A stretch of 54,302 nt of DNA from the NCBI RefSeq assembly GCF_945952055.1, contig NZ_CAMFHB010000041.1, forward strand, positions 1 through 54,302, given 5' to 3'. The position numbers were made by a program, and so were the translations under genes. The notes below the pieces were generated by a model. The model had not been told where the DNA came from. It ran no database searches and saw nothing but the letters and a program-made list of their open reading frames with translations. This stretch comes from an uncultured Alsobacter sp. (GTDB lineage Bacteria > Pseudomonadota > Alphaproteobacteria > Rhizobiales > Beijerinckiaceae). Below are positions 12,738-41,733 of the stretch, in pieces. Numbering within the stretch: the first letter of the stretch is position 1; each line of letters starts with the position of its first letter.

Positions 12738-12756
12738 TCCCCCTGCCCCCTGTTCG

Positions 12757-20579: not shown

Positions 20580-20737
20580 GTCTCAATCCTCGCAGGTCGG
20601 CGGCGGCTCGCGCGCCGGCCATGCGATCGCGGGAATCGCATCCGCTTCGTCCTTACAATGCCAATGTTGCAGAAACCTTGCGCGGCCGATCATTACCGTC
20701 CTAGCCTCCACGCGAATTTTTGATCCGGGGCAGAACA

Positions 20738-24205: not shown

Positions 24206-24787
24206 TCACTGCAGGAGGCGGGTCTCCACGCGGCGGTTGGCGCCGTCGAAGGGATCGTCGGTCTTGGGCTGCGTCTTCCCGTAGCCCTTCGGCGCGAGCC
24301 GCTCGCGGTTGATGCCCTGCTGGGCCAGGAACGACACCACCGACTGAGCCCGCCGCTCCGACAAGGTGAGATTGTAAGTCTCCGGGCCGCGCGCGTCGGT
24401 ATGCCCGTCGATGGCGAAGCGCAGGGTTTCCAGCCGGGGGTCGTTCAGCGCCTTGGCAAACTCGGAAAGGTTGCGCCGCGCCGGCTCGGTCAGCGCATCG
24501 GAGTTCAGGTCGAACGTGACCTCGAGGTCGAACGTGTTGCGCACGGGATCGGCCTGCTTGGCGCAGCCGCCGACGCAGACGGCACGGGTGCCGCCCGGCC
24601 TGGGTGCAAGGAAGAAGTCCAGCACGCTCTGGGCGGAATAGCTGGGCTGGGCCTGCGCCGCGGCCGGCGAGCACACCAAGGAGGACGTCAGGACGCAGAG
24701 CGCTCCACCGGCGATTGTCGCGATCAGCGCCGAGCGAAAGCGATCGGTGTCGAGGATGCGGATCATCGGTTGGTTGGACACTGTCAT
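24206..24787 (-). CDS. OmpA-family peptidoglycan-binding envelope protein
   Basis: A 193-aa exported protein. A hydrophobic segment (IATIAGGALCVLTSSLVCS) acts as signal peptide. The C-terminal OmpA-like domain (about 85-193) has the peptidoglycan-binding pattern DGHTDARGPETYNLTLSERR and GKTQPKTDDPFDGANRRVE. It likely ties the T6SS envelope complex to the cell wall. The start is uncertain: GAGGGAG directly abuts the ATG at 24787 and would suit a GTG 6 nt downstream (24781) better. A TATGAT hexamer at 24806-24811 and palindrome site D lie upstream, shared with the divergent operon. Confidence 0.85.
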   Translation of the reverse strand: MTVSNQPMIRILDTDRFRSALIATIAGGALCVLTSSLVCSPAAAQAQPSYSAQSVLDFFLAPRPGGTRAVCVGGCAKQADPVRNTFDLEVTFDLNSDALTEPARRNLSEFAKALNDPRLETLRFAIDGHTDARGPETYNLTLSERRAQSVVSFLAQQGINRERLAPKGYGKTQPKTDDPFDGANRRVETRLLQ

Positions 24788-24842
24788 CTCCCTCAAAACA
24801 GAGACATCATAGCATCTTGTGCCTCGCGCCGTCAGGATGCGC

Positions 24843-24858
24843 GGTGCGTCGGCGCACG
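24843..24858. promoter_or_regulatory. Palindromic operator candidate, site D
   Basis: GTGCG-TCGG-CGCAC sits almost midway in the divergent gap between the ompA-like gene (about 63 bp from its start) and the DUF6931-like gene that opens the tagH-tssK-tssL-tssM operon (about 66 bp). Confidence 0.6.
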
Positions 24859-24915
24859 TCCCGGACGGCCGGCGCGGGACGATGCGCAGGACAAGCGGCG
24901 GAGCAGGAGCGGGCC

Positions 24916-25485
24916 ATGAGTGCGCCTCACCAACCCAGGATCCGGTTCGCGACCGTCGACGATCTCTATGCGGCGTTTCCCACCGCCGTCGTCGAGATCG
25001 GCGAGCCGGCCGAGCGGCAGCCCTCGCCGGTCTTCGTGGACGCCTGCCTGCGCGCCGAGAAGTGGGACTGCGCCCTCACCTTCCTGGCCTACCTGCTGGG
25101 CAAGCGCGAAGCGGTCTGGTGGGGTTGCACGTGCCTGCGCCAGGTGAAGGTCGACGGCGCGACGGAGGAGGCCTGCCTGCGAGCCGCCGAGGACTGGGTG
25201 CGCAGCCCCGAGGACCAGCGCCGGGTGCACGCGCTCGACATCGGCATGCAGGCTAGCCAGCAGCGCCCCGCGACCTGGATCGCGCTGGCCGCCGGCTGGT
25301 CCAGCGGCAACATGTCCGGCGACGAGCGGTTTCGCATCGCCCCGCCCCCGCAACTGACCGCGCAAGCCGTCCGGGCGGCGATCCTCGGCGCGGGCACGCG
25401 GATTCCCCTGGACCAGCAAGCCGCGCTTTTCAGGAACTGGGCGTCAACGGGTCTGCGCTACGCTCTCGATCCGCAATCCGCCTGA
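24916..25485 (+). CDS. DUF6931-like T6SS-associated protein
   Basis: A 189-aa protein with no signal peptide, probably cytoplasmic. It contains FLAYLLGKREAVWWGCTCLR and TWIALAAGWSSGNMS, a pattern I associate with the DUF6931 family found next to T6SS genes. The family has no known activity. The ATG has AGGAGCGGGCC upstream. It opens the plus-strand operon and lies 19 bp before tagH. Family assignment is moderate. Confidence 0.65.
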   Translation: MSAPHQPRIRFATVDDLYAAFPTAVVEIGEPAERQPSPVFVDACLRAEKWDCALTFLAYLLGKREAVWWGCTCLRQVKVDGATEEACLRAAEDWVRSPEDQRRVHALDIGMQASQQRPATWIALAAGWSSGNMSGDERFRIAPPPQLTAQAVRAAILGAGTRIPLDQQAALFRNWASTGLRYALDPQSA

Positions 25486-25504: not shown

Positions 25505-26980
25505 ATGCGTCTGACCCTGACGATCGAGAACCAGACCAACCTGCCGGACGGCGGGTCCCTCACCTACTCGGTCGCCGGCGCCCGCGGATTCGACATCGGA
25601 CGCGATTCGTATCTCGACTGGGTGCTTCCCGACCCGTCCCGGTTCATCTCGGGCAAGCACTGCGAAATCCGCCCCCAGGGCGGCGAATACCTGCTCTACG
25701 ACGTCTCGCGCAACGGCACCTTCCTGAACGGCGCCCAGCAGCGCATGCAGTCGCCCCACCGCCTGCGCACGGGCGACCGGCTGTCGATCGGCCACTACAT
25801 CGTGGCCGTGGTGGTTGAAGGCGTCGCCGAGAGGCCCGAGGACTTCGGATCGGGCGCCGCGCCGCCAACCCCCGTCGGCGACGCCATGTGGGACTTCAAC
25901 GACGCTGCGCCGCCGGTCGACCAGCGGTCCTTCCGCGCCGATCTCGGCCCGCGCGTGATCCCGCCCGACTTCCACGACAGCGCGGCCGATCCCCTCTCCG
26001 CCGTGCCGACGTGGTCGCAGCCCCCGCCCCTTCCGCCGGTGGCTCCGCCGTCCTCGTCGTTCTCGGACTGGGATGCCGGGCCGCCGCGTGCCGTGCCCAC
26101 CCCACCCGCGCCGCCCCCGATCCCGCGGCCAAGGCCGCAGGTGAGCGGCGGGCCCGGCGGCGTGTGGGCCAGCCCGTCGGCCCCCTCCTCCGCTCCGCAG
26201 CCGCTGCCGTCCTCCACCTGGGACGACGAGCCCGTGCCGGCCAAACCGCCGGCGGCGCTTTCCTCACCCCCGCCGGTCTCGCCTCCCCCTGCCGTGCCGT
26301 CGTTCGAGCCCCCGGTGGCGCCGTCCTTCGAGCCGCCGCCGCCGATGCCCGCGCTCGAGCAGCGCGCTGCCGAGCCGCCGGCCTCACGCGAGCCCGACCG
26401 GCGGGCAGGGTCCGACGATTTCGTGCGTCGCTTCGCGGCGGCGGCCGGGATCGCGCCGGAGATCATGGCGAGGGTGCCGCCGGAGGAACTCGCCGACCGG
26501 CTCGGGCAGCTCATGCGCATGCTGACCGGCGAGATGATGCAACTGCTGAGCGCGCGCTCCGACGCCCGACGCATGACGCGCAGCAGCAGCCAGACGGTCG
26601 TCCAGGCGCTGGACAACAACCCGCTGAAGTTCGCGCCCTCCCCCGAGGAGGCGCTGGCCATCCTGTTCGGCCCGCCGACCCGCAGCTATCTCGACGCGCA
26701 GCGGGCCTTCAAGGCGGGCTTCGCCGACCTGAAGACCCATCAGCTCAAGACCTACGCCGCCATGCAGCAGGCGGCGCGGCGTCTCGGCGACGACCTGTCG
26801 CCCAAGACGATCGAGGCCTCTCTGCCCTCCGAAGGCGGTCTCGCCGGGGTGATCGGCGGCCGCCGCTCGCGCCTGTGGGACACGTATGCCGCGCGGTGGG
26901 CCGCCAGTGCCGAACGCCACGACGGGGGGCTGGCAGATGTGTTTATGCAGTATTTCGCAGAGTGCTATGATCGAACGTAA
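25505..26980 (+). CDS. tagH: T6SS-associated FHA-domain protein TagH/Fha
   Basis: A 491-aa protein. The FHA domain (about 25-95) shows FDIGRDSYLDWVLPDPSRFI followed by SGKHCEI and DVSRNGTFLNG, the phosphothreonine-binding signature with its Arg, Ser-x-x-His and Asn. A long Pro-rich linker follows (about 110-290). The C-terminal TagH domain (about 305-490) contains EALAILFGPPTRSYLDAQRA. In Agrobacterium, Fha reads phosphothreonine on TssL, and the same partners are encoded here (tssL, kinase, phosphatase). Confidence 0.92.
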   Translation: MRLTLTIENQTNLPDGGSLTYSVAGARGFDIGRDSYLDWVLPDPSRFISGKHCEIRPQGGEYLLYDVSRNGTFLNGAQQRMQSPHRLRTGDRLSIGHYIVAVVVEGVAERPEDFGSGAAPPTPVGDAMWDFNDAAPPVDQRSFRADLGPRVIPPDFHDSAADPLSAVPTWSQPPPLPPVAPPSSSFSDWDAGPPRAVPTPPAPPPIPRPRPQVSGGPGGVWASPSAPSSAPQPLPSSTWDDEPVPAKPPAALSSPPPVSPPPAVPSFEPPVAPSFEPPPPMPALEQRAAEPPASREPDRRAGSDDFVRRFAAAAGIAPEIMARVPPEELADRLGQLMRMLTGEMMQLLSARSDARRMTRSSSQTVVQALDNNPLKFAPSPEEALAILFGPPTRSYLDAQRAFKAGFADLKTHQLKTYAAMQQAARRLGDDLSPKTIEASLPSEGGLAGVIGGRRSRLWDTYAARWAASAERHDGGLADVFMQYFAECYDRT

Positions 26981-27021: not shown

Positions 27022-28356
27022 ATGTCCTGGTACAGCAAGGTCGTCTGGCGGGAAGGACTGTTTCTCCGCCCCCATCATTTTCAGCAGCACGACCGCTATT
27101 TGGAGCGGCTCGTCGAGCGTCGGACGCGGTTCACCACGCCCTATCCGTGGGGCTTCGCCGAACTCGAGATCGACCGCGACCTCGCGCAACAGAGCAAGTT
27201 CGCGCTGCGCCGCGCCGTCGGCATCATGCAGGACGGCACACCCTTCGACCTGCCGGGCGACAGCCCGCTGCCCGAGCCCATCGACGTGCCGGACACCGCC
27301 TCCGGCCAGATCCTGTGGCTGACGCTGCCGACCGCGGCGCCCAACACACGGGAGGTCGACCACCGCACCACGGAGAGCGCCAGCCGCTGGCTCGAGGGCG
27401 TCGAGACCATCATCGACTCGACGGCAGAGATCCGCAGCGACGGCGAGATCGACATCGCCCACCCGCGCCTGGCGCTGGACCTGCGCAAGCAGGCGAGCCC
27501 CGGCTATGGCAGCCTGGCGATCGGCCGGGTGGTCGAGGTGCGCGACAAGGTCGTCATCCTGGACGAGCGCTTCGTCGGGCCGCTGCTGGCCACCGCGGCG
27601 CACCCGGTCGTGTCGGGATGGCTGGACCGGGTCATCGGCTGGATCGAGAACCGGCTGGAAGAGCTGTCGCGCTTCGCCGCCGACCCCACGGCGGGGGGCG
27701 GCCTGCAAAGCTTCGACTACCTGATGTTGCAGGTCCTGAACCGCACGATCCCGGTGCTGCGCCATCTGCGGGCCTCCACCTGCGTGCATCCGGAGCGTCT
27801 CTACACCGAGTTCCTGACGCTGGTGGGGGAACTGGCGACCTTCGCGCCGGAGCGGCGCGCGCGGCTCTACCCTGCCTACAACCACGACAGCCTCGACACC
27901 ACCTTCGAGCCGGTGCTGCGCGACCTGCAGGAATTCCTGACCGCGGTGAACCCGAACCGGGCCATCCGGCTCGAGATCATCGAGCGCGCGGCCAACGCCT
28001 TCATCTCCCCGATCCGCGACCGCAACCTGTTCCGGACCTCGACCTTCATCCTCGAGGTCTCGGCGCGGCGTCCGCTGGTCGAGATCCAGAACCAGTTCCC
28101 CAACCTGTTCAAGCTCGGCCCGAGCAACAAGATGAACGACATCGTGCACGCCAACCTGCCCGGCGTGCCCCTCGTCTACCGGCCGACACCGCCACCGCAG
28201 ATCCGCGCCATCGCGGACCACGTCTACTTCTATCTCGATCGCACCTCGCCCCTGTGGCCGGAGTTCAGCACGGCCGCCTCCATCGGCATGCACTTCGCCG
28301 GTGACTGGCCCGAACTCCAGCTCGAACTCTGGGCCGTAGCGGAGAACAGGCGATGA
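27022..28356 (+). CDS. tssK: T6SS baseplate subunit TssK
   Basis: A 444-aa protein linking the baseplate to the membrane complex. The N-terminus MSWYSKVVWREGLFLRPHHF and QQHDRYLERLVERR are diagnostic. Length and C-terminus are normal. Its last bases overlap the tssL start (ATGA). Confidence 0.96.
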   Translation: MSWYSKVVWREGLFLRPHHFQQHDRYLERLVERRTRFTTPYPWGFAELEIDRDLAQQSKFALRRAVGIMQDGTPFDLPGDSPLPEPIDVPDTASGQILWLTLPTAAPNTREVDHRTTESASRWLEGVETIIDSTAEIRSDGEIDIAHPRLALDLRKQASPGYGSLAIGRVVEVRDKVVILDERFVGPLLATAAHPVVSGWLDRVIGWIENRLEELSRFAADPTAGGGLQSFDYLMLQVLNRTIPVLRHLRASTCVHPERLYTEFLTLVGELATFAPERRARLYPAYNHDSLDTTFEPVLRDLQEFLTAVNPNRAIRLEIIERAANAFISPIRDRNLFRTSTFILEVSARRPLVEIQNQFPNLFKLGPSNKMNDIVHANLPGVPLVYRPTPPPQIRAIADHVYFYLDRTSPLWPEFSTAASIGMHFAGDWPELQLELWAVAENRR

Positions 28357-29786
28357 CGAGCGGCGACAATCCGTTCGGCCCCGGGAGCGGCGAACGCACG
28401 GTCTTCATGCCGAACCCGGGCGGCCGGCGCCCACCGACCCCACCGCCTCCGGCGCCTGCGCCGGGCGCGGCCCCGCCGCTTCCCCCCGGCGTCAATTCGC
28501 AGGACGACTGGATCGTCACGCAGCGCGCCCAGCAGCAGGATCCGTCCGCCCACCTGCAGCGCGCCGAGGACCTGCGCTTCGACGAGCTCGCCGCCGACCA
28601 CGAGAACCCGATCATGCGATCGGCGGGGCCGCTGCTGCTGCTGCTCGGCCGGCTGCGGGTCGCCATGGTGCGCGCGTCCTTCGCGAGCCTGATGGAGCAG
28701 GTGGCGGCCGCCATCTCCTTCTTCGACAAGGAGATCCGCGCGGCCGGCGTGAGCCCGGAGCGTGCCAACACGGCCAAGTACATCCTGTGCGCGACGGCCG
28801 ACGACATCGTCCAGAACATCCCCACGTCGGACCGTCACGTCTGGACGCAGTACAGCATGCTCAGCCGCTTCTACGGCGAGCTCCTGGGCGGCGTCCGCTT
28901 CTTCGAGGAGCTGGACAGGCTGCGCCAGGACCCGGTGCAGAACTACGACGTGCTCGAACTGCAGCACGCCTGCCTGGCGCTCGGCTTCCAGGGCGTCCAC
29001 CGTTCGTCGCCCAACGGCATGTCGCAGCTGCAGACGCTGCAGCGCTCGGTCTACGAGCTGCTGCGGCGGGTGAAGCCGAAGGTCCAGGCGGACCTCTCGC
29101 CCCGCTGGCGCGGCCAGGCGCTGGGTCAGCGCGTGCGCTCGGCCACGGTCCCGGTCTGGTCGGTGGGCGCCCTGGCGGCCCTGCTGCTGGTCGGCGGCTT
29201 CCTCGGCCTGCGGACCCTGCTCACCGGCGCCTCGGAGGCCTCGGCGGCGGACGTCATCGGACTGCACCCGTCGACCCCGATCGAGCTCAGGCGGCCCAGG
29301 CCGGCTCCGCCGCCGCCCAAGAAGGAGCTCACCGAGCCCCAGCTGACGCAGCTGCAGCGCATCCGCGCCGGGCTGGCGCCCGAGATCAAGGACGGCACGG
29401 TCACGGTCGATCCGCTGGCCAAGTGGATCGCGGTGCGGGTCGGCAACCTGATCCTGTTCGAGTCGGGCAAGGCCGACGTCGTGCCCGAGTTCAAGCCGCT
29501 CGGGCAGCGCATCGTCCAGATCCTGGAGAAGGAGGTCGGTCCCGTCCGCATCGTCGGGCACACGGACAACCAGCCGCTCAGCGCCCTGAACCGCTTCAAG
29601 GACAACCAGCAGCTCTCGCTGGAGCGCGCCAAGGGCGTGGCCGCGCTCATCCAGCCGAACCTGAAGGACCCCTCGCGCGTGTCCCTCGACGGGCGCGGGC
29701 CGGACGAGCCGATCGGCGACAACAAGACGAACGAGGGCCGGGCCAAGAACCGCCGCGTCGAGATCCTGATCTGGCGGACGGACTGA
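28353..29786 (+). CDS. tssL: T6SS membrane subunit TssL with C-terminal OmpA domain
   Basis: A 477-aa inner-membrane protein. The N-terminal tail NPFGPGSGERTVFMPNPGG carries T16, a candidate kinase target. A Pro-rich stretch and the DotU/TssL cytoplasmic domain follow (about 60-245, AKYILCATADDIVQNIP). One membrane helix comes next (WSVGALAALLLVGGFLGL). The periplasmic OmpA-like domain (about 345-477) has VGHTDNQPL and LSLERAKGV for peptidoglycan binding. This extended form anchors the membrane complex to the wall. TssL phosphorylation on Thr14 in Agrobacterium is established; T16 here is inferred only from position. Confidence 0.94.
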   Translation: MTSGDNPFGPGSGERTVFMPNPGGRRPPTPPPPAPAPGAAPPLPPGVNSQDDWIVTQRAQQQDPSAHLQRAEDLRFDELAADHENPIMRSAGPLLLLLGRLRVAMVRASFASLMEQVAAAISFFDKEIRAAGVSPERANTAKYILCATADDIVQNIPTSDRHVWTQYSMLSRFYGELLGGVRFFEELDRLRQDPVQNYDVLELQHACLALGFQGVHRSSPNGMSQLQTLQRSVYELLRRVKPKVQADLSPRWRGQALGQRVRSATVPVWSVGALAALLLVGGFLGLRTLLTGASEASAADVIGLHPSTPIELRRPRPAPPPPKKELTEPQLTQLQRIRAGLAPEIKDGTVTVDPLAKWIAVRVGNLILFESGKADVVPEFKPLGQRIVQILEKEVGPVRIVGHTDNQPLSALNRFKDNQQLSLERAKGVAALIQPNLKDPSRVSLDGRGPDEPIGDNKTNEGRAKNRRVEILIWRTD

Positions 29787-29948
29787 CCTTCCATGACCCG
29801 TCCGCATCCCCAGCGACCCACCATGCGGCAGGCCGGGACAGCTCCGGCCCGCCGTGACCATGCCTGCGCCTGCCAAGACACCACCCGGTGCAACGACACC
29901 ACCCGGCCCGTTTGGGGCTGGGCACTCACGATTTCAGACGTTCGTTCG

Positions 29949-29976
29949 GCCCTGCGCGGCGAAGCCGCCGCAGGGC
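29949..29976 (+). other. Hairpin in the leader of the cyclase-tssM gene
   Basis: A GC stem of about 12 bp with one bulge (GCCCTGCGCGGC paired with GCCGCCGCAGGGC, loop GAA) ends 24 bp before the start codon, in the 214-bp gap after tssL. It has no U tract, so it is more likely a leader structure than a terminator. The same gap has a direct repeat GACACCACCCGG spaced 18 bp apart. Confidence 0.5.
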
Positions 29977-30000
29977 ACAACCCTTTGCCGCGGATCCACG

Positions 30001-33000
30001 ATGGCCAGCACGAGACAGCTTGCCTGCATTCTGGCCGCCGACGTCGTCGGCTTCTCGTCCCTGATGGAGAAGGACGAGACCAACACCTACCAGCGGGTGC
30101 GTGCACTGCACGACCAGCTGCTGGCGCCGATGGTGAAGGACCGCAACGGGCGGATCGTGAAGACCATGGGCGACGGCGTGCTGGCGGTGTTCGGCAGCGC
30201 CGTGGACGCCGTGGGCCTGGCGCTGGAACTGCAGGCGGCCTGCGGCAACAGCGAGCGAACCCAGGACAAGCCGCTGCGGCTGCGGATCGGGATCAATCTC
30301 GGCGAGATCATCCTGGAGGACGGCGGGGACATCTTCGGCGAGGGCGTCAACATCGCGGCGCGCCTGGAGTCCCTGGCCGAGCCGGGCGGGATCCTGGTCT
30401 CCGGCAAGGTCCACGACGAGATTTCCGGACGCCTGCCCTGCCGCCTGGAGCCCAAGGGCGCCCAGGCGGTCAAGAACATCGCCAAACCCGTGGTGGTCTA
30501 CGCCGTGTCGCCCGCGGCGACGCGCGCGGGCTCCGCCCCGGACAAGGAGTTGCGGCATGACAAGCAAGGCACGACGGCTGCGGGGAGCGCGATGAAGGGG
30601 GCGGGAGTTGCGGGCGAGCTCGGCAAGATCGCCGTCGCCGGCCTGGGCGCGCTCGCGCTCGCGGCCGTCATCGTTCTGGCCGGCCCCTACCTCGCCATCG
30701 GCGATTTCCGGCCGCTCGACAGCGTCATCGTGCGTGCGGTGCTGTCGACGCTGCTGGTCATGGCCTTCGCCGGCTATGCGGCCTGGAAGGTCTACAAGCG
30801 TGGCAAGGACGCCAACGCGCTCGCCGAGGGCATGGCGGCCGGCCCGCAGGAGGACGACAGCGCCGAGCTGAAGAGCCGCATCGGCGACGCCGTCACCACG
30901 CTGCGCCAGTCGGCCGGCGGACGCGCGGACGCCCTCTACGACCTGCCCTGGTACATGATCATCGGGCCACCCGGCTCGGGCAAGACGACCGCCCTGGTCA
31001 ACTCGGGCCTGCGCTTTCCCCTCGCCGGCAAGGCGACGCCCGCGGCCGTGGCCGGGGCTGGCGGCACGCGCTACTGCGACTGGTGGTTCACCGACGAGGC
31101 GATCCTCATCGACACGGCGGGCCGCTACACGACGCAGGATTCCGACGCACGGGCCGACCGCGACAGCTGGCTCGCCTTCCTCGACCTGCTCAAGACCCAC
31201 CGGGCCCAGCAGCCGATCAACGGCGTGCTCGTGGCGATCAGCCTGCAGGACCTGCTGACCCTGAGCCCGCAGGAGCTGGAGGCCCATTCGCGCGCCATCC
31301 GCGGACGCCTGGCCGAACTGCACGACCGGCTCAAGATCAACTTCCCGGTCTACGTGGTCTTCACCAAGGCCGACCTCGTGGCCGGCTTCATGGAGTTCTT
31401 CGGCAATCTCGGCGAGCAGGCCCGCCGGCAGGTGTGGGGCGTCACCTTCCAGACGACCGACAAGACGAAGAACCTCGTCAACGAGGTGCCCGGCGAGTTC
31501 GAGGCGCTCATCCGCCGCCTCAACCAGGACCTGAGCGACCGGCTTCAGGAAGAGCCCGCACCCGCCACGCGCGCCTCGCTCTATGGCTTCCCGGCGCAGC
31601 TGGCCGCGCTGAAGCGACCGATCCAGGACTTCCTGGGCTCGATCTTCGAGCCCACCCGCTTCCACGCCAACGCCACCCTGCGCGGATTCTACTTCACGTC
31701 GGGCACCCAGTTCGGCACCCCCATCGACCAGCTCGTCAACGCGCTGGTGAAGAACTTCGGCGCTCAGGAGGTGGGTGGCGCCTCCTATTCCGGGCTCGGC
31801 AAGAGCTTCTTCCTGACCGACCTGATCCAGAAGGTCATCATCGGCGAGGCCTCGTGGGTCTCCACGGACCTGCGCGCCGTCAGGCGCCGGCAGATCCTGC
31901 GCGCCACCGCCTTCGCGGCGATCCTCGCCTGCGCCGGCGCGCTGGGCGGCGCCTGGTGGGTGAGCTACGCGCGCAACAAGGCCCTGATCGAGGCCGAGGC
32001 TTCCGCCGCGACCGAATATGCCTCCGCTGCGGGCCCGCTCGTCACCGAAAATCCCATCGGCGACAGGGAGTTCGCGAAGGTTCTTCCGGCGCTCCAGAAG
32101 CTGCGCTTCCTGCCCGCGGGCTATGCGTCGCGCGACGACTCCATCCCGCTGGCGGCCGGCTTCGGCCTGAGCCAGCAGGAGCGCCTCGCCTCGGCGGGCA
32201 CGACGGCCTACGCCATGGGCCTCGAGCGCCTGTTCCGGCCGCGCCTCCTGTTCCGGCTGGAGGAGGTGCTGAACGCCAACAAGGACAATGCGCCGTTCAT
32301 CTACGAGGCCCTCAAGATCTACATGATGCTTGGAGGGCGCCACCCGGCCGACAAGGACGTGGTGGTGTCCTGGTTCCGCCAGGACTGGGCGCAGAACCTC
32401 TACCCCGGCGGCGGCCAGTCCGAGGGCCGCAAGGCGCTGGAGGAACATCTCGTCGCGCTTCTCGACCTGGAGGGCACGCGCGATCCGCTGGTCGAGATCA
32501 GCGGGCCGCTGCTCGCCGACAGCCAGGCCACGCTGGCCCGCCTGAGCATCCGCGAGCGTGCCTACGAGATGCTGAAGTCGCGCGCCCGCGCCTCCGGCCC
32601 GCAGGACTGGATCGTCGCGCGCGCCGCAGGTCCCGACTTCGCCCGCGTCTTCGACGTGGCGGGAGGCGACCCTGAGGCCGTCCGCGTGCCGGGCTTCTAC
32701 ACCTACGCCGGCTTCCAGCGCGCCTTCCTCGACCAGCTCGGCGACGTCGCCGACAAGGTGAAGGCCGAGCAGTGGGTGCTGGGCAAGCTGGCCGAGAACG
32801 CCCAGGTCAGCGACCAGTACAGGACGCTGAACCAGGACCTCCTCGTCCAGTACGGGCGCGATTTCGAGCGCGCCTGGCTCGACGCCCTCGCCAAGATGCA
32901 GATGAAGCCGCTGACGGCCGACAAGCCGCGCTACCAGGTTCTGGGCTCGGTGGGCGGGCCGACCTCGCCGCTGCGCTCCATCTTCGAGTCCATCAAGGCC

Positions 33001-34113
33001 GAGACGGCGCTCACCAAGGACCGCCCCGACCTCGCCAAGCCGGCGGCCCCCGGCGCGGCGCCCGCCGCGGCCCAGCCGCCCCGGGCGACGCTGTTCGCGC
33101 AGGGAGAACCACCGCCCGGCACGCGCATCGAGGAACGCTTCCGGCCCTTCCACGAGTGGACGGACGGGGCGACGACGAAGCGGCCCATCGACGAGCTGGT
33201 CGCCATCCTCAGCGACATCAACGACAGCCTGATCACCAGCGCCAACGTGCCGGCCCAGGCGGCCCAGGCCAACCAGCAGCTCCAGGTGCTCGCCGCCAAG
33301 CTGCGCGGGCAGGCCAACCGCCTCCCCGACCCGTTCCGCGGCATGATCCTGCGGGCCAGCGACGCGGTGGAGCGCGACTCGATCATCAGCGACAAGTCCA
33401 AGATCAACGCCGACATGGCGAGCGCCATCAACGCGATCTGCAAGGACGTGACGGAGAACAAGTTCCCGTTCGGCCCGACCTCCCGGCCCGACAGCAATCT
33501 CGGCCAGTTCGGCAAGCTGTTCGGCCCCAACGGCACCATCGACGAGTTCTTCAGGACGCGCCTGAGCAAGTACGTCGACACGTCGGGCCGCGACTGGAAG
33601 GTCCGCGCCGACATGCCGCCGCAGCTCACCATGAACGGCGAGACGCTGAAGCAATTCCAGAACGCGTCGATCATCCGCGACACCTTCTTCGCCCAGGGCG
33701 GCAGCGTGCCCTCGCTGGTGCTGGGCGTGACGCCGGGCCAGGTGCTGCGCCCGGGCGCGGTGCTCGTGTTCGACCATTTCGGCCAGCGGATCGAAAGCAA
33801 GCCGGCCGGCCAGCCGCCGGCGCCGTCCCAGATCATGTGGCCGGGTCTGGCGGCATCGGGTGCCGGCAAGCTCACCATCACCATGACCGCCAGCGACACC
33901 CCGCCGGGCGTCGGCAACCCGGTCATCGAGCAGTCCGGGCCGTGGGCGCTCTTCAAGCTGCTCGCCACGGCGGCCCAGCGCGGCCCCAACGCGGTCGAGT
34001 GGACCGGGGTCGTCGGTGGCGTGGAGGCCCGCTACCAGGTCAGCTACTCGACGCCGCAGAACCCCTTCAGGCTGGAGGCACTGCGACAGTTCAAGTGCCC
34101 TGGCCCGCTGTAG
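30001..34113 (+). CDS. tssM: Class III adenylate cyclase domain fused to T6SS membrane subunit TssM
   Basis: A 1,370-aa fusion. Residues 1-170 are a class III nucleotidyl cyclase: first metal Asp in ILAADVVGFSS (D14), second in TMGDGVLAVF (D58), Lys54, and GDIFGEGVNIAARLES with D110, N117 and R121. All residues expected for catalysis and for ATP preference appear present. After a 40-residue linker comes TssM/IcmF: two membrane helices (about 210-262), Walker A GPPGSGKT (322-329), a third helix near 630-650, and a large periplasmic part with the IcmF-related core. Since TssM's N-terminus is cytoplasmic, the cyclase would face ATP. I start at the ATG followed by ASTRQLACILAAD; the frame also opens upstream but is not family-like. 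An internal ATG at 30592 with GGGGAG upstream could yield TssM alone. Confidence 0.92.
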   Translation: MASTRQLACILAADVVGFSSLMEKDETNTYQRVRALHDQLLAPMVKDRNGRIVKTMGDGVLAVFGSAVDAVGLALELQAACGNSERTQDKPLRLRIGINLGEIILEDGGDIFGEGVNIAARLESLAEPGGILVSGKVHDEISGRLPCRLEPKGAQAVKNIAKPVVVYAVSPAATRAGSAPDKELRHDKQGTTAAGSAMKGAGVAGELGKIAVAGLGALALAAVIVLAGPYLAIGDFRPLDSVIVRAVLSTLLVMAFAGYAAWKVYKRGKDANALAEGMAAGPQEDDSAELKSRIGDAVTTLRQSAGGRADALYDLPWYMIIGPPGSGKTTALVNSGLRFPLAGKATPAAVAGAGGTRYCDWWFTDEAILIDTAGRYTTQDSDARADRDSWLAFLDLLKTHRAQQPINGVLVAISLQDLLTLSPQELEAHSRAIRGRLAELHDRLKINFPVYVVFTKADLVAGFMEFFGNLGEQARRQVWGVTFQTTDKTKNLVNEVPGEFEALIRRLNQDLSDRLQEEPAPATRASLYGFPAQLAALKRPIQDFLGSIFEPTRFHANATLRGFYFTSGTQFGTPIDQLVNALVKNFGAQEVGGASYSGLGKSFFLTDLIQKVIIGEASWVSTDLRAVRRRQILRATAFAAILACAGALGGAWWVSYARNKALIEAEASAATEYASAAGPLVTENPIGDREFAKVLPALQKLRFLPAGYASRDDSIPLAAGFGLSQQERLASAGTTAYAMGLERLFRPRLLFRLEEVLNANKDNAPFIYEALKIYMMLGGRHPADKDVVVSWFRQDWAQNLYPGGGQSEGRKALEEHLVALLDLEGTRDPLVEISGPLLADSQATLARLSIRERAYEMLKSRARASGPQDWIVARAAGPDFARVFDVAGGDPEAVRVPGFYTYAGFQRAFLDQLGDVADKVKAEQWVLGKLAENAQVSDQYRTLNQDLLVQYGRDFERAWLDALAKMQMKPLTADKPRYQVLGSVGGPTSPLRSIFESIKAETALTKDRPDLAKPAAPGAAPAAAQPPRATLFAQGEPPPGTRIEERFRPFHEWTDGATTKRPIDELVAILSDINDSLITSANVPAQAAQANQQLQVLAAKLRGQANRLPDPFRGMILRASDAVERDSIISDKSKINADMASAINAICKDVTENKFPFGPTSRPDSNLGQFGKLFGPNGTIDEFFRTRLSKYVDTSGRDWKVRADMPPQLTMNGETLKQFQNASIIRDTFFAQGGSVPSLVLGVTPGQVLRPGAVLVFDHFGQRIESKPAGQPPAPSQIMWPGLAASGAGKLTITMTASDTPPGVGNPVIEQSGPWALFKLLATAAQRGPNAVEWTGVVGGVEARYQVSYSTPQNPFRLEALRQFKCPGPL

Positions 34114-34124
34114 GACACGCCGCC

Positions 34125-34823
34125 ATGCGCCTCGGGCTGTTCGGAAAGCTGCATGCCAAGAGGGACTTCATCGCGGTGTCGACGCCGCGGGCTTTCCTGA
34201 ACTGCTGGGAGCCGTGGCTCCAGGGCGCCATGTCGGCGAGCCGGCACGCCCTGGGCGACGCCTGGCAGCCGGCCTTCCTGGAAGCCCCCATCTGGCGCTT
34301 CTGGCTGGGTCCCGCCCTGTGCGGCGTGCCGGTGCTGGGCGCGATGATGCCCTCGATCGACGGGGTGGGCCGCTACTACCCGCTGACCCTGATCGCCTGC
34401 GATCCGGATGTGCCATCGGGCACACCGGCCATCCCGCCCCCCGAGCACAATGCCCAGGATGCCTGGTTCGCGGAGGCCGAGGCCCTGTTGTTCGACACCC
34501 TGGATCCCAACCGCCCCTTCGAGCACACGACGGCTGCGCTCGAGGCGCTGTCCCATCCCGAGACGGCGCCCGTTCTCGCCGGTCCGCTCGAGCCCGCCTA
34601 TGGCGGTGTCGTGACGGCCGAGGGCGACCCGACGCAGTTCGACGTCGGCACGTCCTTCGCGCAGTTGCGGGCGGGCGCCTGGCCCCTGCAGCAGGCGGGC
34701 CTCACCTGCTGGTGGACCGCCGGCGGCGCGGGCTACCCGCCGCGGGCGGCCACCTTCGCCGGAATGCCCGATCCCTACTTCCTGACGGGCGTCCTCACGG
34801 GACGCTTCGCCGGTTCCTCCTGA
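34125..34823 (+). CDS. tagF: T6SS-associated protein TagF (ImpM family)
   Basis: A 232-aa cytoplasmic protein with the TagF opening LGLFGKLHAKRDFIAVSTPR and the core WRFWLGPALCGVPVLGAMMP plus GRYYPLTLIA. TagF proteins repress T6SS assembly after translation, in part by binding Fha in some species. It lies 11 bp after tssM and 14 bp before the phosphatase gene, so it belongs to the same transcription unit. Confidence 0.93.
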   Translation: MRLGLFGKLHAKRDFIAVSTPRAFLNCWEPWLQGAMSASRHALGDAWQPAFLEAPIWRFWLGPALCGVPVLGAMMPSIDGVGRYYPLTLIACDPDVPSGTPAIPPPEHNAQDAWFAEAEALLFDTLDPNRPFEHTTAALEALSHPETAPVLAGPLEPAYGGVVTAEGDPTQFDVGTSFAQLRAGAWPLQQAGLTCWWTAGGAGYPPRAATFAGMPDPYFLTGVLTGRFAGSS

Positions 34824-34837
34824 GTCCGGATGAGCCC

Positions 34838-35647
34838 ATGTCGCACCCCCCGTCCCCGTCGCTCCCGTCCTGGCCCGGCGCCTCGTTCGACACCTTCGGG
34901 GCCACCCATGCGGGGCGGGTGCGCGACCACAACGAGGACAGCTTCTGCCTGCGGCCGGACTCGGGCCTGTGGGTCGTGGCGGACGGCATGGGCGGCCACG
35001 CCGCGGGCGAGGTGGCCAGCGCCGCCATCGTCGAGGTGCTGGGCGCGGTGGGGCCGCAGGAGAGCGCGGCCAACCTCATGAAGGCCTGCGACGACGGGCT
35101 GGCCGAGGCCAATGCGAGGATCCGGGCCTACGCGGCCCAGCGCAGCCACGGTGTGATGGGCGCCACGGTCGCGGTGCTGCTGACCTTCGGCGAGCACTTC
35201 GCCTGCGTCTGGTCGGGCGACAGCCGGGTCTACCTCGTGCGCCAGCACACAATTCTTCAAGTGACTCGCGACCATACTGAAGCTGAGGATCTGCTGGCGC
35301 AGGGGGTCCTGACCGAAGCGGAAGCCAAGGCCTGGCCCCGGCGCAACGTCATCACGCGGGCCATCGGCGTGTTCGAGGAGCCCATGCTCGACCACCGCCA
35401 CGGCGAACTGGAACCGGGAGACATCTTCGTGCTGTGCAGCGACGGCCTCACCGGCCACGTCGAACCGGACGAGATCCTCGCCGCCGTCAGCCGGCGGCGG
35501 GCGGAGATCGCCGTCGGCGAGCTGATCGGCATGACGCTGGACCGGGGCGCCAAGGACAACGTCACCGTCGTCGTGATCCGCTACCGGCCCGAGGACGGCG
35601 CCACCGTCGCGCCCTTCACGGCCGCCGTTCGCAACATCTGGGACTGA
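34838..35647 (+). CDS. pppA: PP2C-family protein phosphatase (PppA/Stp type)
   Basis: A 269-aa soluble Ser/Thr phosphatase. The PP2C motifs are in order: RVRDHNEDSF, VVADGMGGHAAGE (metal-binding Asp), WSGDSRVYL, CSDGLTGHV and GAKDNVTVVV. It would reverse phosphorylation by the adjacent kinase on Fha, TssL or other T6SS parts. The start is the ATG followed by SHPPSPSLPS. It ends 4 bp before the kinase start. Confidence 0.94.
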   Translation: MSHPPSPSLPSWPGASFDTFGATHAGRVRDHNEDSFCLRPDSGLWVVADGMGGHAAGEVASAAIVEVLGAVGPQESAANLMKACDDGLAEANARIRAYAAQRSHGVMGATVAVLLTFGEHFACVWSGDSRVYLVRQHTILQVTRDHTEAEDLLAQGVLTEAEAKAWPRRNVITRAIGVFEEPMLDHRHGELEPGDIFVLCSDGLTGHVEPDEILAAVSRRRAEIAVGELIGMTLDRGAKDNVTVVVIRYRPEDGATVAPFTAAVRNIWD

Positions 35648-35651
35648 AACC

Positions 35652-37631
35652 GTGGCCGATCCGACCATCTTCCAGCCCAGCAACGGCGCGCTGCCGCCCG
35701 GCACGCAGCTCAACGGCATCTATGAGATCGACGCGCATCTCGCCAGCGGCGGCATGGGCGACGTCTACCGCGGCCACGAGCTGCAGACCGGCGAGCCGGT
35801 CGCCATCAAGGTCATCCGCACCGACCTCGCCGACAACGAGGCCGCGCTGGCCATGTTCCGCCGCGAGGCCTCGGCGCTCAACCGCCTGCATCACGAGGCG
35901 ATCGTCCGCTACTACGTGTTCTCGCTGGACCCGGTGTTGCGCCGCCACTACCTGGCGATGGAGCTCGTCGAGGGACATTCTCTCGGGGACGTACTGCGCA
36001 ACGGGCCTCTCTCGCCCGCCCAGGCGCTCGTCCTGCTGCGTCGCGTCGCCTCGGGGCTCGGCGCCGCGCATGAGCGCGGCATCATCCACCGCGACATTTC
36101 CCCCGACAACATCATCGTCTCGCAGGGCGACTACGCCCGCGCCCGCATCATCGACTTCGGCATCGCGCGCTCCACGCGGGTTGGCGACGCGACCGTGCTC
36201 GGCGGCGGTTTCGCCGGAAAGTACAACTACGTCTCGCCCGAGCAGCTCGGCCACTTCGGTGGCGAGGTCACGGGGCGCTCGGACATCTACTCGCTGGGCC
36301 TCGTGATCGCGCAGGCGCTGCTCGGCAAGCCCATCGACATGGGCGGCAGCCAGCTCGAGATCATCGACAAGCGCCGCAAGGTTCCGGACCTGTCGGGCAT
36401 CGCCCCCGAAATGCGCCCCCTGCTCGAGCGGATGCTGCAGCCCGATCCCGCCGCGCGCTTCGCGACCATGCAGGAGGCGATCGACTGGCAGCAGGCCGCC
36501 CCGCAGGCCCAGGGTCGCAAGGGCGCGGCCCCGACCCCGCCACGCGCCGAGCAGGCCCGCTCCGACCGCGCGCCGGCGCCGAAGCCGGCGGGGGGCGGCG
36601 GCAAGGGCCTGGTCATCGGGCTCGCCGTGCTGGTGCTGGGCGGCGTCGGCGGCTTTCTCGCCTGGCTGAATGCCGGCTCGAAGCCGGTGGTGAAGGCGCC
36701 CGAGAAGGAGATCACGCTCGAAACCGCCGACAAGCGGCCGCCGGTGCAGCCCCCGGTCCCGCAGGAGCCGAACGCCAACGGCGGGACGGGCCCGAATACC
36801 CCCACCGACACGGCGCAGAACCGCCCGATCGATTGCAGCCAGCCGGCTCTCCAGAAGGACGCCATCATCGCGTGGACGGAGAAATGCGGCAAGCCGCCCG
36901 GAACGGACGTGACGACCGGGCCCGCGGTTCCGGCCACGCCCGTCGAACCGCCGGCTGCACCGACCGTACCGACCGCGCCGCCTGTTCCGACGGCGCCCAC
37001 CGCGCCACCCCCGTCGCTGGAGGGCCCGGTGCGCAAATACGTGCGCGGCTACGACATCGGCGAATGCGCGGCGCTGCTGCCCGGCCCGGTCGGCGACAAG
37101 TCGGCCGACGTGGACGGCTACGGCGTGGACGACAAGCCGTTCCACCGTTTCGACAAGGACTTCAAGGACCGCTTCACCTGGGAGGCCTCCATCGGCGTGC
37201 GCCTCATCAAGCCGGCGCAATGCGCCGCGATGCCGTTCGTCGCCCGGCTGGTGAAGGACGGGTCGGACCAGGTGGCCCTCAGCACCGGCGTGGAGTCGCT
37301 GAAGAGCCGCGACACCCTGACGGGCACCGTCGAGTCGCGCGGGGGAGCCCCGTTGCTCCTGCTCGTGGACGACGACGGCGACGTGCACGACATCACGAGC
37401 CAGGCGACCGGCGACGCGCAGAAGAAGACCTTCCGGCTGCGCCTCGAGATGAAGCCGGGCACCACCGCGGCGGCGCCGATCCTGCTCATCGCGGTCACGG
37501 GGGCGGACATCCCGGCCTTGAAGGCGGCCTCCAACGTGCCGGGCAAGCGGGCCTTTCCGAAGGCCCTCGAGCAGCTCGGCAAGACGACGGGCGCCTCGGT
37601 GGCCGTCAAGTTCGTGACGCTCGAGCCATGA
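35652..37631 (+). CDS. ppkA: Transmembrane Ser/Thr protein kinase (PpkA-like)
   Basis: A 659-aa kinase starting at GTG. The N-terminal kinase domain (about 22-290) has the Gly-rich loop ASGGMGDVYRG, Lys53 in AIKVI, catalytic HRDISPDN (D148) and DFG at 168-170. Then come a Pro-rich linker, one membrane helix (about 317-338), another Pro-rich stretch and a periplasmic domain (about 450-659) with no clear family. That outer domain could sense the envelope state. The HRDISPDN form (rather than HRDLKPEN) is seen in other Hanks-type kinases. It overlaps the next frame's upstream ATG by 4 bp. Confidence 0.92.
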   Translation: MADPTIFQPSNGALPPGTQLNGIYEIDAHLASGGMGDVYRGHELQTGEPVAIKVIRTDLADNEAALAMFRREASALNRLHHEAIVRYYVFSLDPVLRRHYLAMELVEGHSLGDVLRNGPLSPAQALVLLRRVASGLGAAHERGIIHRDISPDNIIVSQGDYARARIIDFGIARSTRVGDATVLGGGFAGKYNYVSPEQLGHFGGEVTGRSDIYSLGLVIAQALLGKPIDMGGSQLEIIDKRRKVPDLSGIAPEMRPLLERMLQPDPAARFATMQEAIDWQQAAPQAQGRKGAAPTPPRAEQARSDRAPAPKPAGGGGKGLVIGLAVLVLGGVGGFLAWLNAGSKPVVKAPEKEITLETADKRPPVQPPVPQEPNANGGTGPNTPTDTAQNRPIDCSQPALQKDAIIAWTEKCGKPPGTDVTTGPAVPATPVEPPAAPTVPTAPPVPTAPTAPPPSLEGPVRKYVRGYDIGECAALLPGPVGDKSADVDGYGVDDKPFHRFDKDFKDRFTWEASIGVRLIKPAQCAAMPFVARLVKDGSDQVALSTGVESLKSRDTLTGTVESRGGAPLLLLVDDDGDVHDITSQATGDAQKKTFRLRLEMKPGTTAAAPILLIAVTGADIPALKAASNVPGKRAFPKALEQLGKTTGASVAVKFVTLEP

Positions 37632-37645
37632 CGAGGAGCACCGGC

Positions 37646-39241
37646 ATGAAACGCCCGTTCCGGTCGTCCGTCCTGTGCCGAGGCGCCGCCCGCGGCGTGC
37701 TTCTGGCGGGGCTGGCCGCTGCGCCGGCCCAGGCGGAGCTGCGTGGGCTCGTCGTCGGCATCGACACGTACCAGGGCGTTCCGCCCCTGCGTGGCGCCGT
37801 CGCCGACGCCAACGACATCGCGGCTGTGCTGCGGGGCCGTGGCGCCCGGGACGTGATGATCCTCACGAACGCAACGGCGACGCCCAAGGCCATCGAGGGG
37901 GCGCTCGACACGCTCGCGAAACGGGCAAGGCCGGACGACACGGTTATGCTGTCCTTCGCGGGCATCGGCGGCACGCTCGGCGGGACGGCGGGCGGCAGCG
38001 CGTTCCTGCTGGCCGGCTACCGGCCCGGAGCCCCGTCGGCGGACGTGCTCCCCTGGGCCTCGGTCCTCGCGGCGGCCGCGCGGATCGAGAAGGCGGGGGC
38101 CCAGGTCATCGTCGTCAACGACTACGCCAGCGGTCGCGACCAGGTGCGGGCCACCGACGACCGGGCCGCCGGCGGAGCCGCGCGCGGCACGGCCGAGCGC
38201 ATCGACGCGCGAGCGGCGCCCGCGGCCCGGCCGCCGGACCTGAAGCGCACGGCCATCCTGTCGGCCGCCTCGGCCGGCCGCGGCGCGGCCGAGGTGATGA
38301 TCGAGGATCGCGGACCGCGTGGCGCGCTGAGCTACGCCGTGGCGCGCGGGCTCGAAGGCGCCGCGGACGCCAACCACGACGGATCCGTGAGCGGCACCGA
38401 ACTGTCCGACTACGTCCGGCTGGTCGGCTACCAGATCGCCGACCAGAGGCAGCAACCCGACGTCGTGGCCGGCGCGGAACTGTCGCGCGGCATCTCGGTC
38501 CAGCCCGTCGGCACGGCGAAGCCGCCGCCCCAGCCGGCGACACCGCCGCCGACCGCCCTGCCCCCGCCTCCCCCGGCCGGATCGGCGCAGCAGGTCCCGC
38601 CCAGGACCGACGGACCGAAGATCAGGGTGGCCGCGTTCGACGGCATGGGCGCCAAGCTGCAGAATTTCGTGCTGCCGGTGCCGTTCCAGATCGTCGAGCC
38701 CAAGGATTCGCCAGACCTGCTGTGGGATCCCGGCACGAAGGACGTCGTGTCCGGTGGGGACGTGATCGCGCGCAACGTCGAGATCGGCGACATGGCCGGC
38801 GTCATCGAGCGCACCGCCGTCATCCGGTCGCTGCGCACCGTGGTAGCCCGCGCCCCGCAGGCCATCCGCCTGCTGCCCGGAGACGGCCTGCACCGCAAGG
38901 GCAATCGCGTCGAGATCGAGGTGAAGGCGCTGCGCGGCCGGGCGCTGGTGATGTTCAACATCGCCGGCAACGGAGCCGTCCAGATGCTCTATCCGGCGGG
39001 CAACGACCGCAACACCTTCGACCAAGACGATTACCGGCTTCCCCTGTCGGTGAGCGAGCCTTTCGGCGCCGACCAGGTGGTGGCCGTCACGATGCCGCAA
39101 CGCCTGCCCGACGTGGAGAAGGCGATCCGCGACCTGGAAAGGCCGAGCCTGAACAAGGCGCCGGGACGCGTTCTCGATATTCTGGCGAAGCTCCCGCCCG
39201 GTTCCGCGGTCGGGACCGTCGGCCTGTTCACGGCCCCCTGA
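37646..39241 (+). CDS. Catalytically dead caspase-fold protein with DUF4384-like domain
   Basis: A 531-aa exported protein. GAGGAG lies 8 nt before the chosen ATG and a signal peptide follows (GVLLAGLAAAPAQA). Another ATG 18 nt upstream overlaps the kinase stop. The caspase-like domain (about 31-270) keeps LRGLVVGIDTYQGVPPLRGA and a DANHDGSVSGTE loop (241-252) like an EF-hand, but the His position is Ile (FAGIGG, I107) and the Cys motif is replaced (VIVVNDYASG, 154-163). A Pro-rich linker leads to a DUF4384-like domain (about 400-485, GRALVMFNIAGNGAVQMLYP). It may act as a scaffold or sensor next to the kinase. Confidence 0.82.
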   Translation: MKRPFRSSVLCRGAARGVLLAGLAAAPAQAELRGLVVGIDTYQGVPPLRGAVADANDIAAVLRGRGARDVMILTNATATPKAIEGALDTLAKRARPDDTVMLSFAGIGGTLGGTAGGSAFLLAGYRPGAPSADVLPWASVLAAAARIEKAGAQVIVVNDYASGRDQVRATDDRAAGGAARGTAERIDARAAPAARPPDLKRTAILSAASAGRGAAEVMIEDRGPRGALSYAVARGLEGAADANHDGSVSGTELSDYVRLVGYQIADQRQQPDVVAGAELSRGISVQPVGTAKPPPQPATPPPTALPPPPPAGSAQQVPPRTDGPKIRVAAFDGMGAKLQNFVLPVPFQIVEPKDSPDLLWDPGTKDVVSGGDVIARNVEIGDMAGVIERTAVIRSLRTVVARAPQAIRLLPGDGLHRKGNRVEIEVKALRGRALVMFNIAGNGAVQMLYPAGNDRNTFDQDDYRLPLSVSEPFGADQVVAVTMPQRLPDVEKAIRDLERPSLNKAPGRVLDILAKLPPGSAVGTVGLFTAP

Positions 39242-39251
39242 GGAGGCGACG

Positions 39252-39938
39252 ATGTTCAAGACGGCCCTCGTCACGACCACCCTGCTCGGCCTGGCCCTGT
39301 GCTGGCCCGCGGCCGCGCAGACGTCCCCGGACCGGGCAGTCAAGATCATCACGCCCCCGCCGGCCGGCAGCCAGCCGAGCCCGCCCAGCGCGACCGAGCA
39401 GCCGACCCTGGGCAGCGCGCCCCCGGTGTTCACACCCGACGACGATGCCAACCCCTCCGGTGTCACCCTCGAGATCGCGCCGGGGAACGAGGCCCAGGTG
39501 GGCTCGCGCATGTCGGTGAAGGTCGCCACCAAGCGCGAAGGCTACCTCGTGCTCGTCGACGTGGACGCCGCCGGCACCCTGACCCAGGTCTATCCGAACA
39601 GGCTCTCGCTGGTCTCGGCCACCGCCGGCGACGAGCAGCAGAACCTGCTCAAGCCCGGCCGGCTGAAGATCATTCCGGAGCCGACCGGCAAGGAGGCGTT
39701 CGAGTTCGTCGCCAGCCCGCCGACCGGACTCGGCATGCTCGTCGCCATCCTGAGCGACGCGCCCGTGCTCTACGTCGATCTTCCCGACGTCCCGGCGGCC
39801 ATGGCCGGCCAGAAGAACGCGGCGCAGTATCTGGTCAGCCAGACCCGCAGCCTCAAGATCCTTCCCGCCGAGGACGACAAGCCGATCCGCGACCCGAAAT
39901 GGTCGTTCGCCGTCAAGTTCTACTCGATCCGCCCGTGA
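39252..39938 (+). CDS. Secreted DUF4384-domain protein
   Basis: A 228-aa protein with a signal peptide (MFKTALVTTTLLGLALCWPA, cut near AAAQ). After a Pro/Ser-rich stretch the DUF4384-like domain begins at about residue 70 (VTLEIAPGNEAQVGSRMSVK, then GYLVLVDVDAAGTLTQVYPN). The domain is often linked with caspase-fold and kinase proteins; its function is unknown. It lies 10 bp after the caspase-fold gene, whose C-terminal domain is of the same type. Confidence 0.85.
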   Translation: MFKTALVTTTLLGLALCWPAAAQTSPDRAVKIITPPPAGSQPSPPSATEQPTLGSAPPVFTPDDDANPSGVTLEIAPGNEAQVGSRMSVKVATKREGYLVLVDVDAAGTLTQVYPNRLSLVSATAGDEQQNLLKPGRLKIIPEPTGKEAFEFVASPPTGLGMLVAILSDAPVLYVDLPDVPAAMAGQKNAAQYLVSQTRSLKILPAEDDKPIRDPKWSFAVKFYSIRP

Positions 39939-41370: not shown

Positions 41371-41733
41371 ATGCCGATGCAGACCATCAATGCGATGAAC
41401 ATGATCATCTGCACCGGCTGCCCCATCCCGCAGCCTCTGCTCGTGACGAGCAACCAGACGAGCTACAACACCAAGCAGTTCTCGGCGACGGTCAACGACT
41501 GCATCCCGATGGTCAACATCAAGCCGTTCGGGCCGTGCGCGTTCACGCCGCTACCGCCGAGCCCCAGCGGCGGGCCGTGCATTCCCAAGCCGGTCGGCAC
41601 GTGGATGCCGGGATCCTTCACCCTGTTCCACCAGAAGCAGCGTGCACTGCGCCTGACCGACAAGCTGCAATGCGGCTCGGGCGGCACGATCAGCTTCGTG
41701 AATCCCGGCCAGTTCCCGCAGGACGTGGACTGA
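41371..41733 (+). CDS. PAAR-like (DUF4280) T6SS tip protein
   Basis: A 120-aa protein. The pattern fits the DUF4280 PAAR-like family: MNMIICTGC near the start, NDCIPMVNIKPFGPCAF in the middle, then GPCIPKPVGTWMPG and a final LQCGSGGTISFVNPGQ. Such proteins cap the VgrG spike and carry effectors. It is the only PAAR-type gene in the window, and no effector gene follows it. AGGAGA lies 6 nt upstream of the ATG. Its stop codon touches the palindromic repeat element. Confidence 0.85.
   Translation: MPMQTINAMNMIICTGCPIPQPLLVTSNQTSYNTKQFSATVNDCIPMVNIKPFGPCAFTPLPPSPSGGPCIPKPVGTWMPGSFTLFHQKQRALRLTDKLQCGSGGTISFVNPGQFPQDVD

What the first reader, a model, noticed from the sequence alone, without database searches (positions are those of the whole stretch)
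30001..34113. Adenylate cyclase domain fused to the N-terminus of TssM
One uninterrupted frame encodes a class III cyclase with its metal Asps (D14, D58), Lys54, D110, N117 and R121, then a complete TssM with three membrane helices and a Walker A. The cyclase would sit in the cytoplasm on the T6SS membrane complex. I know of no described TssM of this build. It would let the assembled or contracting machine make cAMP, or let cAMP output report its state. The residues are seen; family roles are known; the signalling role is inferred.
Basis: partly seen in the sequence, partly recalled or inferred. Interest (0 to 1): 0.9.

Follow-up and report, generated by a model that had tools for sequence, protein, structure and literature searches.

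The report
Adenylate cyclase built into T6SS TssM
A bacterial protein-injection machine appears to carry, on one of its membrane anchor proteins, an extra domain that looks able to make the signal molecule cyclic AMP; if real and active, the weapon could report its own assembly to the cell.

Summary
Confirmed: one open frame (30001-34113, 1,370 aa) holds an N-terminal class III cyclase domain with all six catalytic residues and a near-complete TssM with Walker A and three membrane segments, in a T6SS cluster that also encodes kinase-, phosphatase-, Fha- and TagF-like proteins. In relatives tssM directly follows tssL; here about 0.8 kb (214 nt non-coding plus the cyclase) lies between, and TssM's ancestral start survives as Met198: an insertion joined in frame. 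It is rare: of 218 distinct TssM cores scanned, only this one has a cyclase in frame (212 of the 217 others had at least 600 nt upstream to judge). A parallel: in Lichenifustis a cyclase-like domain is fused to the kinase of the same operon, next to a CRP-family gene, but its base-recognition residues are changed. Best reading: a membrane-complex-tethered adenylate cyclase, working as a dimer when TssM assembles; activity and coupling are inferred. Main rival: one wrong base in the linker of this draft assembly, splitting two overlapping genes; third-position G+C argues against it, a codon score did not decide, and no second genome with the fusion was found. New variant of a known kind.

The parts
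30001..34113 (+). cyclase-TssM fusion gene, 1,370 aa
   Evidence: one open frame with Guanylate_cyc and four IcmF/TssM Pfam models
30001..30543 (+). class III nucleotide cyclase domain (residues 1-181), D14 K54 D58 D110 N117 R121
   Evidence: PDB 3mr7 E 4.1e-39
30544..30591 (+). linker between cyclase and ancestral TssM start
   Evidence: G+C at position 3 in 27 of 30 codons over 30502-30591; low pLDDT in the model
30592..30594 (+). Met198, likely the ancestral tssM start codon; possible internal start
   Evidence: lies where TssM of relatives starts (L075, L077, L087 and others shown)
30616..30783 (+). first two TssM membrane segments (residues 206-236, 238-261)
   Evidence: hydropathy; helices 193-230 and 242-279 in the model
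30964..30987 (+). Walker A GPPGSGKT (residues 322-329)
31150..31920 (+). IcmF-related_N domain
31894..31962 (+). third TssM membrane segment (residues 632-654)
29787..30000 (+). 214-nt non-coding stretch between tssL and the fusion gene; no sigma-70-like promoter or intrinsic terminator by consensus scan
28353..29786 (+). tssL (DotU + OmpA), N-terminal RTVFMPNPGG
34107..34823 (+). tagF (exact start not fixed)
34826..35647 (+). PP2C phosphatase (PppA-like; exact start not fixed)
35652..37631 (+). Ser/Thr kinase (PpkA-like), no cyclase domain
25505..26980 (+). Fha-like protein (FHA + T6SS_FHA_C)

Best explanation
A class III adenylate cyclase domain was inserted, probably with its own 5' region, between tssL and tssM and joined in frame to TssM, giving a cyclase tethered to the inner-membrane ring of the T6SS. 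Class III cyclases work as head-to-tail dimers (recalled family knowledge) and the best studied T6SS membrane complex holds ten TssM in a fivefold ring, so assembly of TssM would bring cyclase domains together and allow cAMP synthesis at the machine; cAMP would be read by some of the genome's 18 cNMP-binding domains. Shown: fused frame, intact residues, insertion, conserved TssM, cNMP-binding domains in the genome. Inferred: that the domain is active, that it prefers ATP, that assembly or TssM's ATP-driven change controls it, and that cAMP is the output.
For: Five Pfam domains over cut-off. Six catalytic residues kept, while 4 of 12 other cyclase domains of this genome deviate beyond the T/S type (one of the four, L279, is a weak match). 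Third-position G+C stays high through the linker. From the tssL stop to TssM residue 281 there are 156-466 nt in the 127 of 130 other loci where both were found (some loci are copies of one another), 1,055 nt here. Met198 lies where TssM of relatives starts. The nearest paralogue has the same layout: N-terminal cyclase, then a membrane segment and a further stretch. Kinase, phosphatase, Fha and TagF genes lie in the cluster; in Agrobacterium, TssL phosphorylation triggers a TssM change (PMC3953482, passages). Ten TssM per complex (PMC10433429, passages). 18 cNMP-binding matches. A second recruitment of a cyclase-like domain to this operon in Lichenifustis, on the kinase, beside a CRP-family gene.
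Against: No second genome carries the fusion (1 of 218 distinct TssM cores). The linker is low-complexity and of low confidence in the model, so rigid transmission from TssM to the cyclase is unlikely. No CRP-family match among the 35 window frames that I gave to Pfam; not every frame was given. The Lichenifustis domain has lost the adenine-recognition pair (K54 to D, D110 to K), so that parallel is no evidence of cAMP output. My codon log-odds score did not single out the fused frame. Nothing here shows activity.
Confidence: 0.45

Rival explanations
1. Two genes, not one: a stand-alone cyclase gene whose stop overlaps the tssM start (ATGA), separate in reality but fused in this assembly by one wrong base in the linker.
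For: Stops lie close in both other frames (30558 and 30593), the second overlapping the Met198 codon; four-base runs lie at 30536 and 30582 and a five-base run at 30597; the genome is a 106-contig draft; the fusion is a singleton; the codon log-odds score did not favour the fused frame.
Against: Position 3 is G or C in 15 of 15 codons over 30502-30546 and 12 of 15 over 30547-30591 in the fused frame (positions 1 and 2: 11 and 12, then 10 and 9), so an error would most likely sit near the end of the linker. No stop lies inside any of the 12 cyclase matches (in one search one longer alignment, on C24, runs over a TAG). The T6SS genes given to Pfam match in single frames. ATGA at the TssM start also occurs by the second codon alone in several relatives shown.
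Confidence: 0.12
2. Constitutive membrane-tethered cyclase: TssM is only an anchor and cyclase activity is not coupled to the T6SS.
For: Linker without predicted order; insertion seen in this lineage only; cyclase domains with assorted partners are common in this genome.
Against: Anchoring to a many-copy ring should affect dimerisation by itself (inference); the partner is a T6SS core part rather than any membrane protein.
Confidence: 0.23
3. Two products: the full fusion plus free TssM from the preserved internal start Met198, so that only some TssM subunits carry a cyclase.
For: Met198 lies at the ancestral start and GGGGAG stands four bases before it.
Against: The spacing is short; no experiment.
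Confidence: 0.12
4. Catalytically idle cyclase fold used as a dimerisation or ATP-sensing module of TssM.
For: The related fusion in Lichenifustis has altered base-recognition residues.
Against: All six catalytic residues are kept here.
Confidence: 0.08

Closest known systems
TssM/IcmF of the T6SS membrane complex (Agrobacterium and E. coli type)
   Same: TssM Pfam domains, Walker A, three membrane segments, place after tssL and before tagF
   Different: N-terminal cyclase of about 180 residues plus linker before the ancestral start
Class III adenylate cyclases with N-terminal catalytic domain (3mr7-like; in this genome C10:99924)
   Same: Catalytic residues and domain length
   Different: The C-terminal partner is a T6SS core component
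Cyclase-kinase fusion of Lichenifustis flavocetrariae (L084 10136-12544)
   Same: N-terminal cyclase-like domain fused to a protein of the same T6SS operon
   Different: Partner is the kinase, base-recognition residues changed, CRP-family gene adjacent
TagP (Pseudomonas putida K1-T6SS)
   Same: A TssM derivative with a changed domain make-up (PMC10433429, passage)
   Different: [quoted passage not shown] no cyclase is mentioned

Membership tests
TssM (T6SS) | IcmF-related_N, IcmF-related, helical and C2-like domains | tested here: met
   all four above cut-off
TssM (T6SS) | Three membrane segments, two N-terminal and one after the NTPase domain | tested here: met
   (hydropathy); helices
TssM (T6SS) | Walker A (not in every TssM, recalled) | tested here: met
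   GPPGSGKT 322-329
TssM (T6SS) | Gene inside a T6SS cluster with core genes | tested here: met
   ClpV-like AAA, TssF, TssG, TssE (gp25), Hcp, TssC, TssB, TssA (ImpA_N), VgrG-like, Fha, TssK, TssL; no SciN/TssJ match in the genome
Class III adenylate cyclase | Two metal-binding aspartates | tested here: met
   D14, D58; roles recalled
Class III adenylate cyclase | Lys/Asp adenine recognition pair and Asn/Arg transition-state pair | tested here: met
   K54, D110, N117, R121; roles recalled
Class III adenylate cyclase | Catalytic activity as a dimer | not testable with these tools
   no biochemistry; the cyclase part of the model is of low confidence
T6SS-state-coupled cyclase | cAMP output depends on TssM assembly | not testable with these tools
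   inference only

The most novel reading that the evidence does not exclude
The T6SS membrane complex is itself a second-messenger enzyme: a ring of TssM-borne cyclases turns assembly into cAMP, beside the threonine phosphorylation pathway; and T6SS operons of Hyphomicrobiales have recruited cyclase domains at least twice, on TssM here and on the PpkA-like kinase in Lichenifustis.
Probability: 0.35. Interest if true: 0.85.

Novelty: new variant of a known kind. Interest (0 to 1): 0.6.

Why it matters
To my knowledge, how a cell senses that its own T6SS has assembled or fired is poorly understood. A cyclase covalently on TssM would give a direct, measurable readout (cAMP) of membrane-complex assembly, a natural counterpart of the adenylate-cyclase two-hybrid assays used on T6SS proteins (PMC4604203, passages).

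Tried and rejected
Chance or a spurious GC-rich frame: rejected by Pfam scores and third-position G+C; the codon log-odds score was no help, as it did not separate the frames.

Other long TssM frames as fusions: every listed row with a frame of 1,350 or more codons was held or fetched and scanned; none has a cyclase. Limits: only some first-look candidates per genome were scored by those searches; frames of 1,290-1,349 codons were mostly not scanned, so a cyclase on a short TssM could be missed; 5 of the 218 distinct cores have under 600 nt upstream. For the long-frame loci with a tssL match, tssL ends within 466 nt before the residue matching our 281, so no cyclase gene fits between. The cyclase profile was built from 19 of 24 intended rows; the script dropped five and at least three look read on the wrong strand; it still found the cyclases of L074 and L084 and all 12 other cyclases of the genome.

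Recent copy inside the genome: rejected; the best other DNA match is 69% over about 500 bases, and the 214-nt upstream stretch has nothing better than E about 0.2 and no match at E 1e-3 in 279 held loci, though a 30-nt piece of the linker matches L159 at 90%. Flanking repeats of an insertion: none convincing; a 10-base repeat at 30546 and 30604 may be chance. Viral contigs with the cyclase as query: no relative. Solved structures with TssM alone: none by sequence. Plasmids: none of the 40 rows listed of 810 records starts before query residue 229. Model of residues 1-700: TssM part fair, cyclase part poor (mean pLDDT 64.9); not used as evidence for the cyclase fold.

More cyclase-kinase fusions like L084: the cyclase profile finds one (L084) in the 80 named loci, 56 of which hold such a kinase; none of the 42 kinase rows listed (337 genomes, E cut 1e-45, list cut, at most 4 candidates scored per genome) is aligned from before query residue 185, and the 10 loci fetched from it show no cyclase; a more diverged cyclase could be missed. 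In plasmids no place covers 80% of the query.
Full report
Observation. The frame at 30001-34113 is open and encodes 1,370 residues. Pfam finds a Guanylate_cyc domain at 7-159 (E 1.2e-15) and four TssM/IcmF domains up to residue 1348, all over their cut-offs. The cyclase aligns over 4-176 with PDB 3mr7 and over 9-150 with Ma1120. The start at 30001 fits the third-position G+C and the start of a paralogue.

Setting. The window is contig C41 of a 6.6-Mb, 106-contig genome. Two genomes that the tool puts in its family carry the same tssM as named records: a Hyphomicrobiales MAG (G632 = L075) and Bosea sp. CS1GBMeth4 (G013 = L087), so the host belongs in that order (inference; its own name is not given). 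The cluster has genes for ClpV, TssF, TssG, TssE, Hcp, TssC, TssB, TssA, VgrG, Fha, TssK, TssL, the fusion, TagF, a PP2C phosphatase and a Ser/Thr kinase. No TssJ (SciN) match was found in the genome. TssL begins with RTVFMPNPGG near its start; 35 of 78 TssL found in the 80 named loci have a motif of this shape by my pattern. That this is the phosphorylated site is a guess: in Agrobacterium TssL is phosphorylated at Thr14, in a region conserved in Agrobacterium and Rhizobium, and this triggers a TssM change (PMC3953482, passages).

How the fusion arose. In relatives tssM starts close behind tssL: from the tssL stop to the residue matching our 281 there are 156-466 nt in the 127 of 130 other loci where both were found; here there are 1,055 (some loci are copies of one another, and a few distant ones align weakly). 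The extra stretch is 214 nt of non-coding DNA and the cyclase. TssM of relatives starts where Met198 lies. So a cyclase gene, probably with its 5' region, was placed before tssM and joined in frame; the old start codon remains and may still be used. The nearest relative in the genome (69% DNA identity over about 500 bases) has an N-terminal cyclase, one membrane segment and a further stretch without Pfam match.

How rare. I scanned 233 TssM loci, 218 distinct TssM cores (213 with at least 600 nt upstream held), with a cyclase profile; only the window has a cyclase in the TssM frame. Of the three same-genus genomes listed, none has the fusion in the search; one (G002) has a different TssM (37%) and one (G003) is only 83% complete. 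The closest TssM found (73% over 420 residues, L075) has no cyclase.

A parallel. In Lichenifustis flavocetrariae (L084) the operon reads TssM, TagF, PP2C, then a protein with a cyclase-like domain (Guanylate_cyc E 3.7e-5, 23.8 bits, cut-off 21.9) and a Ser/Thr kinase domain, and next to it, on the other strand, a CRP-family gene. The kinase is 60% identical to the window's kinase. The domain keeps the counterparts of D14, D58, N117 and R121 but has D for K54 and K for D110 (a one-residue gap lies near the latter). So operons of this kind have taken up cyclase-like domains on two different parts, but the second may not make cAMP. It was the only one found.

Mechanism. Shown: fused frame, intact catalytic residues, tether to a core membrane part, 18 cNMP-binding matches in the genome. 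From literature: TssM is an inner-membrane protein with three membrane segments, a cytoplasmic N-terminal part and a periplasmic part (PMC3213119, passages), ten copies per complex (PMC10433429, passages), and a change after TssL phosphorylation (PMC3953482, passages). Inferred: cyclase dimers form when TssM assembles, so cAMP reports assembly. The linker, without predicted order, argues for control by proximity rather than by a rigid lever.

Against. The fusion rests on one draft assembly. In the two other frames stops lie at 30558 and 30593, the latter overlapping the Met198 codon, so one wrong base in the linker would make two coupled genes. Third-position G+C in the fused frame is 27 of 30 through the linker, against 21 and 21 at the other positions, and the T6SS genes given to Pfam match in single frames; but the codon log-odds score did not decide. 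I give this rival 0.12.

Literature. Ten searches of the held library showed no TssM with a cyclase in the rows listed (six aimed at it directly: 9, 14, 34, 36, 66, 67). Lists were cut: 20 of 26, 15 of 21, 15 of 85, 8 of 49, 12 of 20, 12 of 290. I saw listings and abstract starts, and passages of five papers (PMC3213119, PMC3953482, PMC10433429, PMC4604203, PMC9972734). In PMC4604203 'adenylate cyclase' means the two-hybrid assay; in PMC9972734 'adenylyl cyclase' is part of the GAF name. The library lacks most subscription papers.

Noticed in passing
L084:10136-12544: Lichenifustis flavocetrariae T6SS kinase with an N-terminal cyclase-like domain, base-recognition residues changed, beside a CRP-family gene at 12554-13252 on the other strand.
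   Followed up: partly
2734-4410 and 5315-7537 (-): Two caspase-like (Peptidase_C14) genes beside the T6SS cluster, one with Sel1/TPR repeats.
   Followed up: no
20720-22060 (+): TPR plus methyltransferase protein between tssA and vgrG.
   Followed up: no
24206-24796 (-) and 24604-25485 (+): An OmpA-like frame and a DUF6931 frame overlap on opposite strands.
   Followed up: no
41371-41733 (+): DUF4280 protein (PAAR-like by recall) downstream of the kinase.
   Followed up: no
37675-39519 (+): 614-aa frame behind the kinase without any Pfam match.
   Followed up: no
G000, 12 other cyclase domains (L270-L281): Two have the same catalytic sextet as the fusion, six have T or S for D110, four deviate otherwise.
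   Followed up: yes
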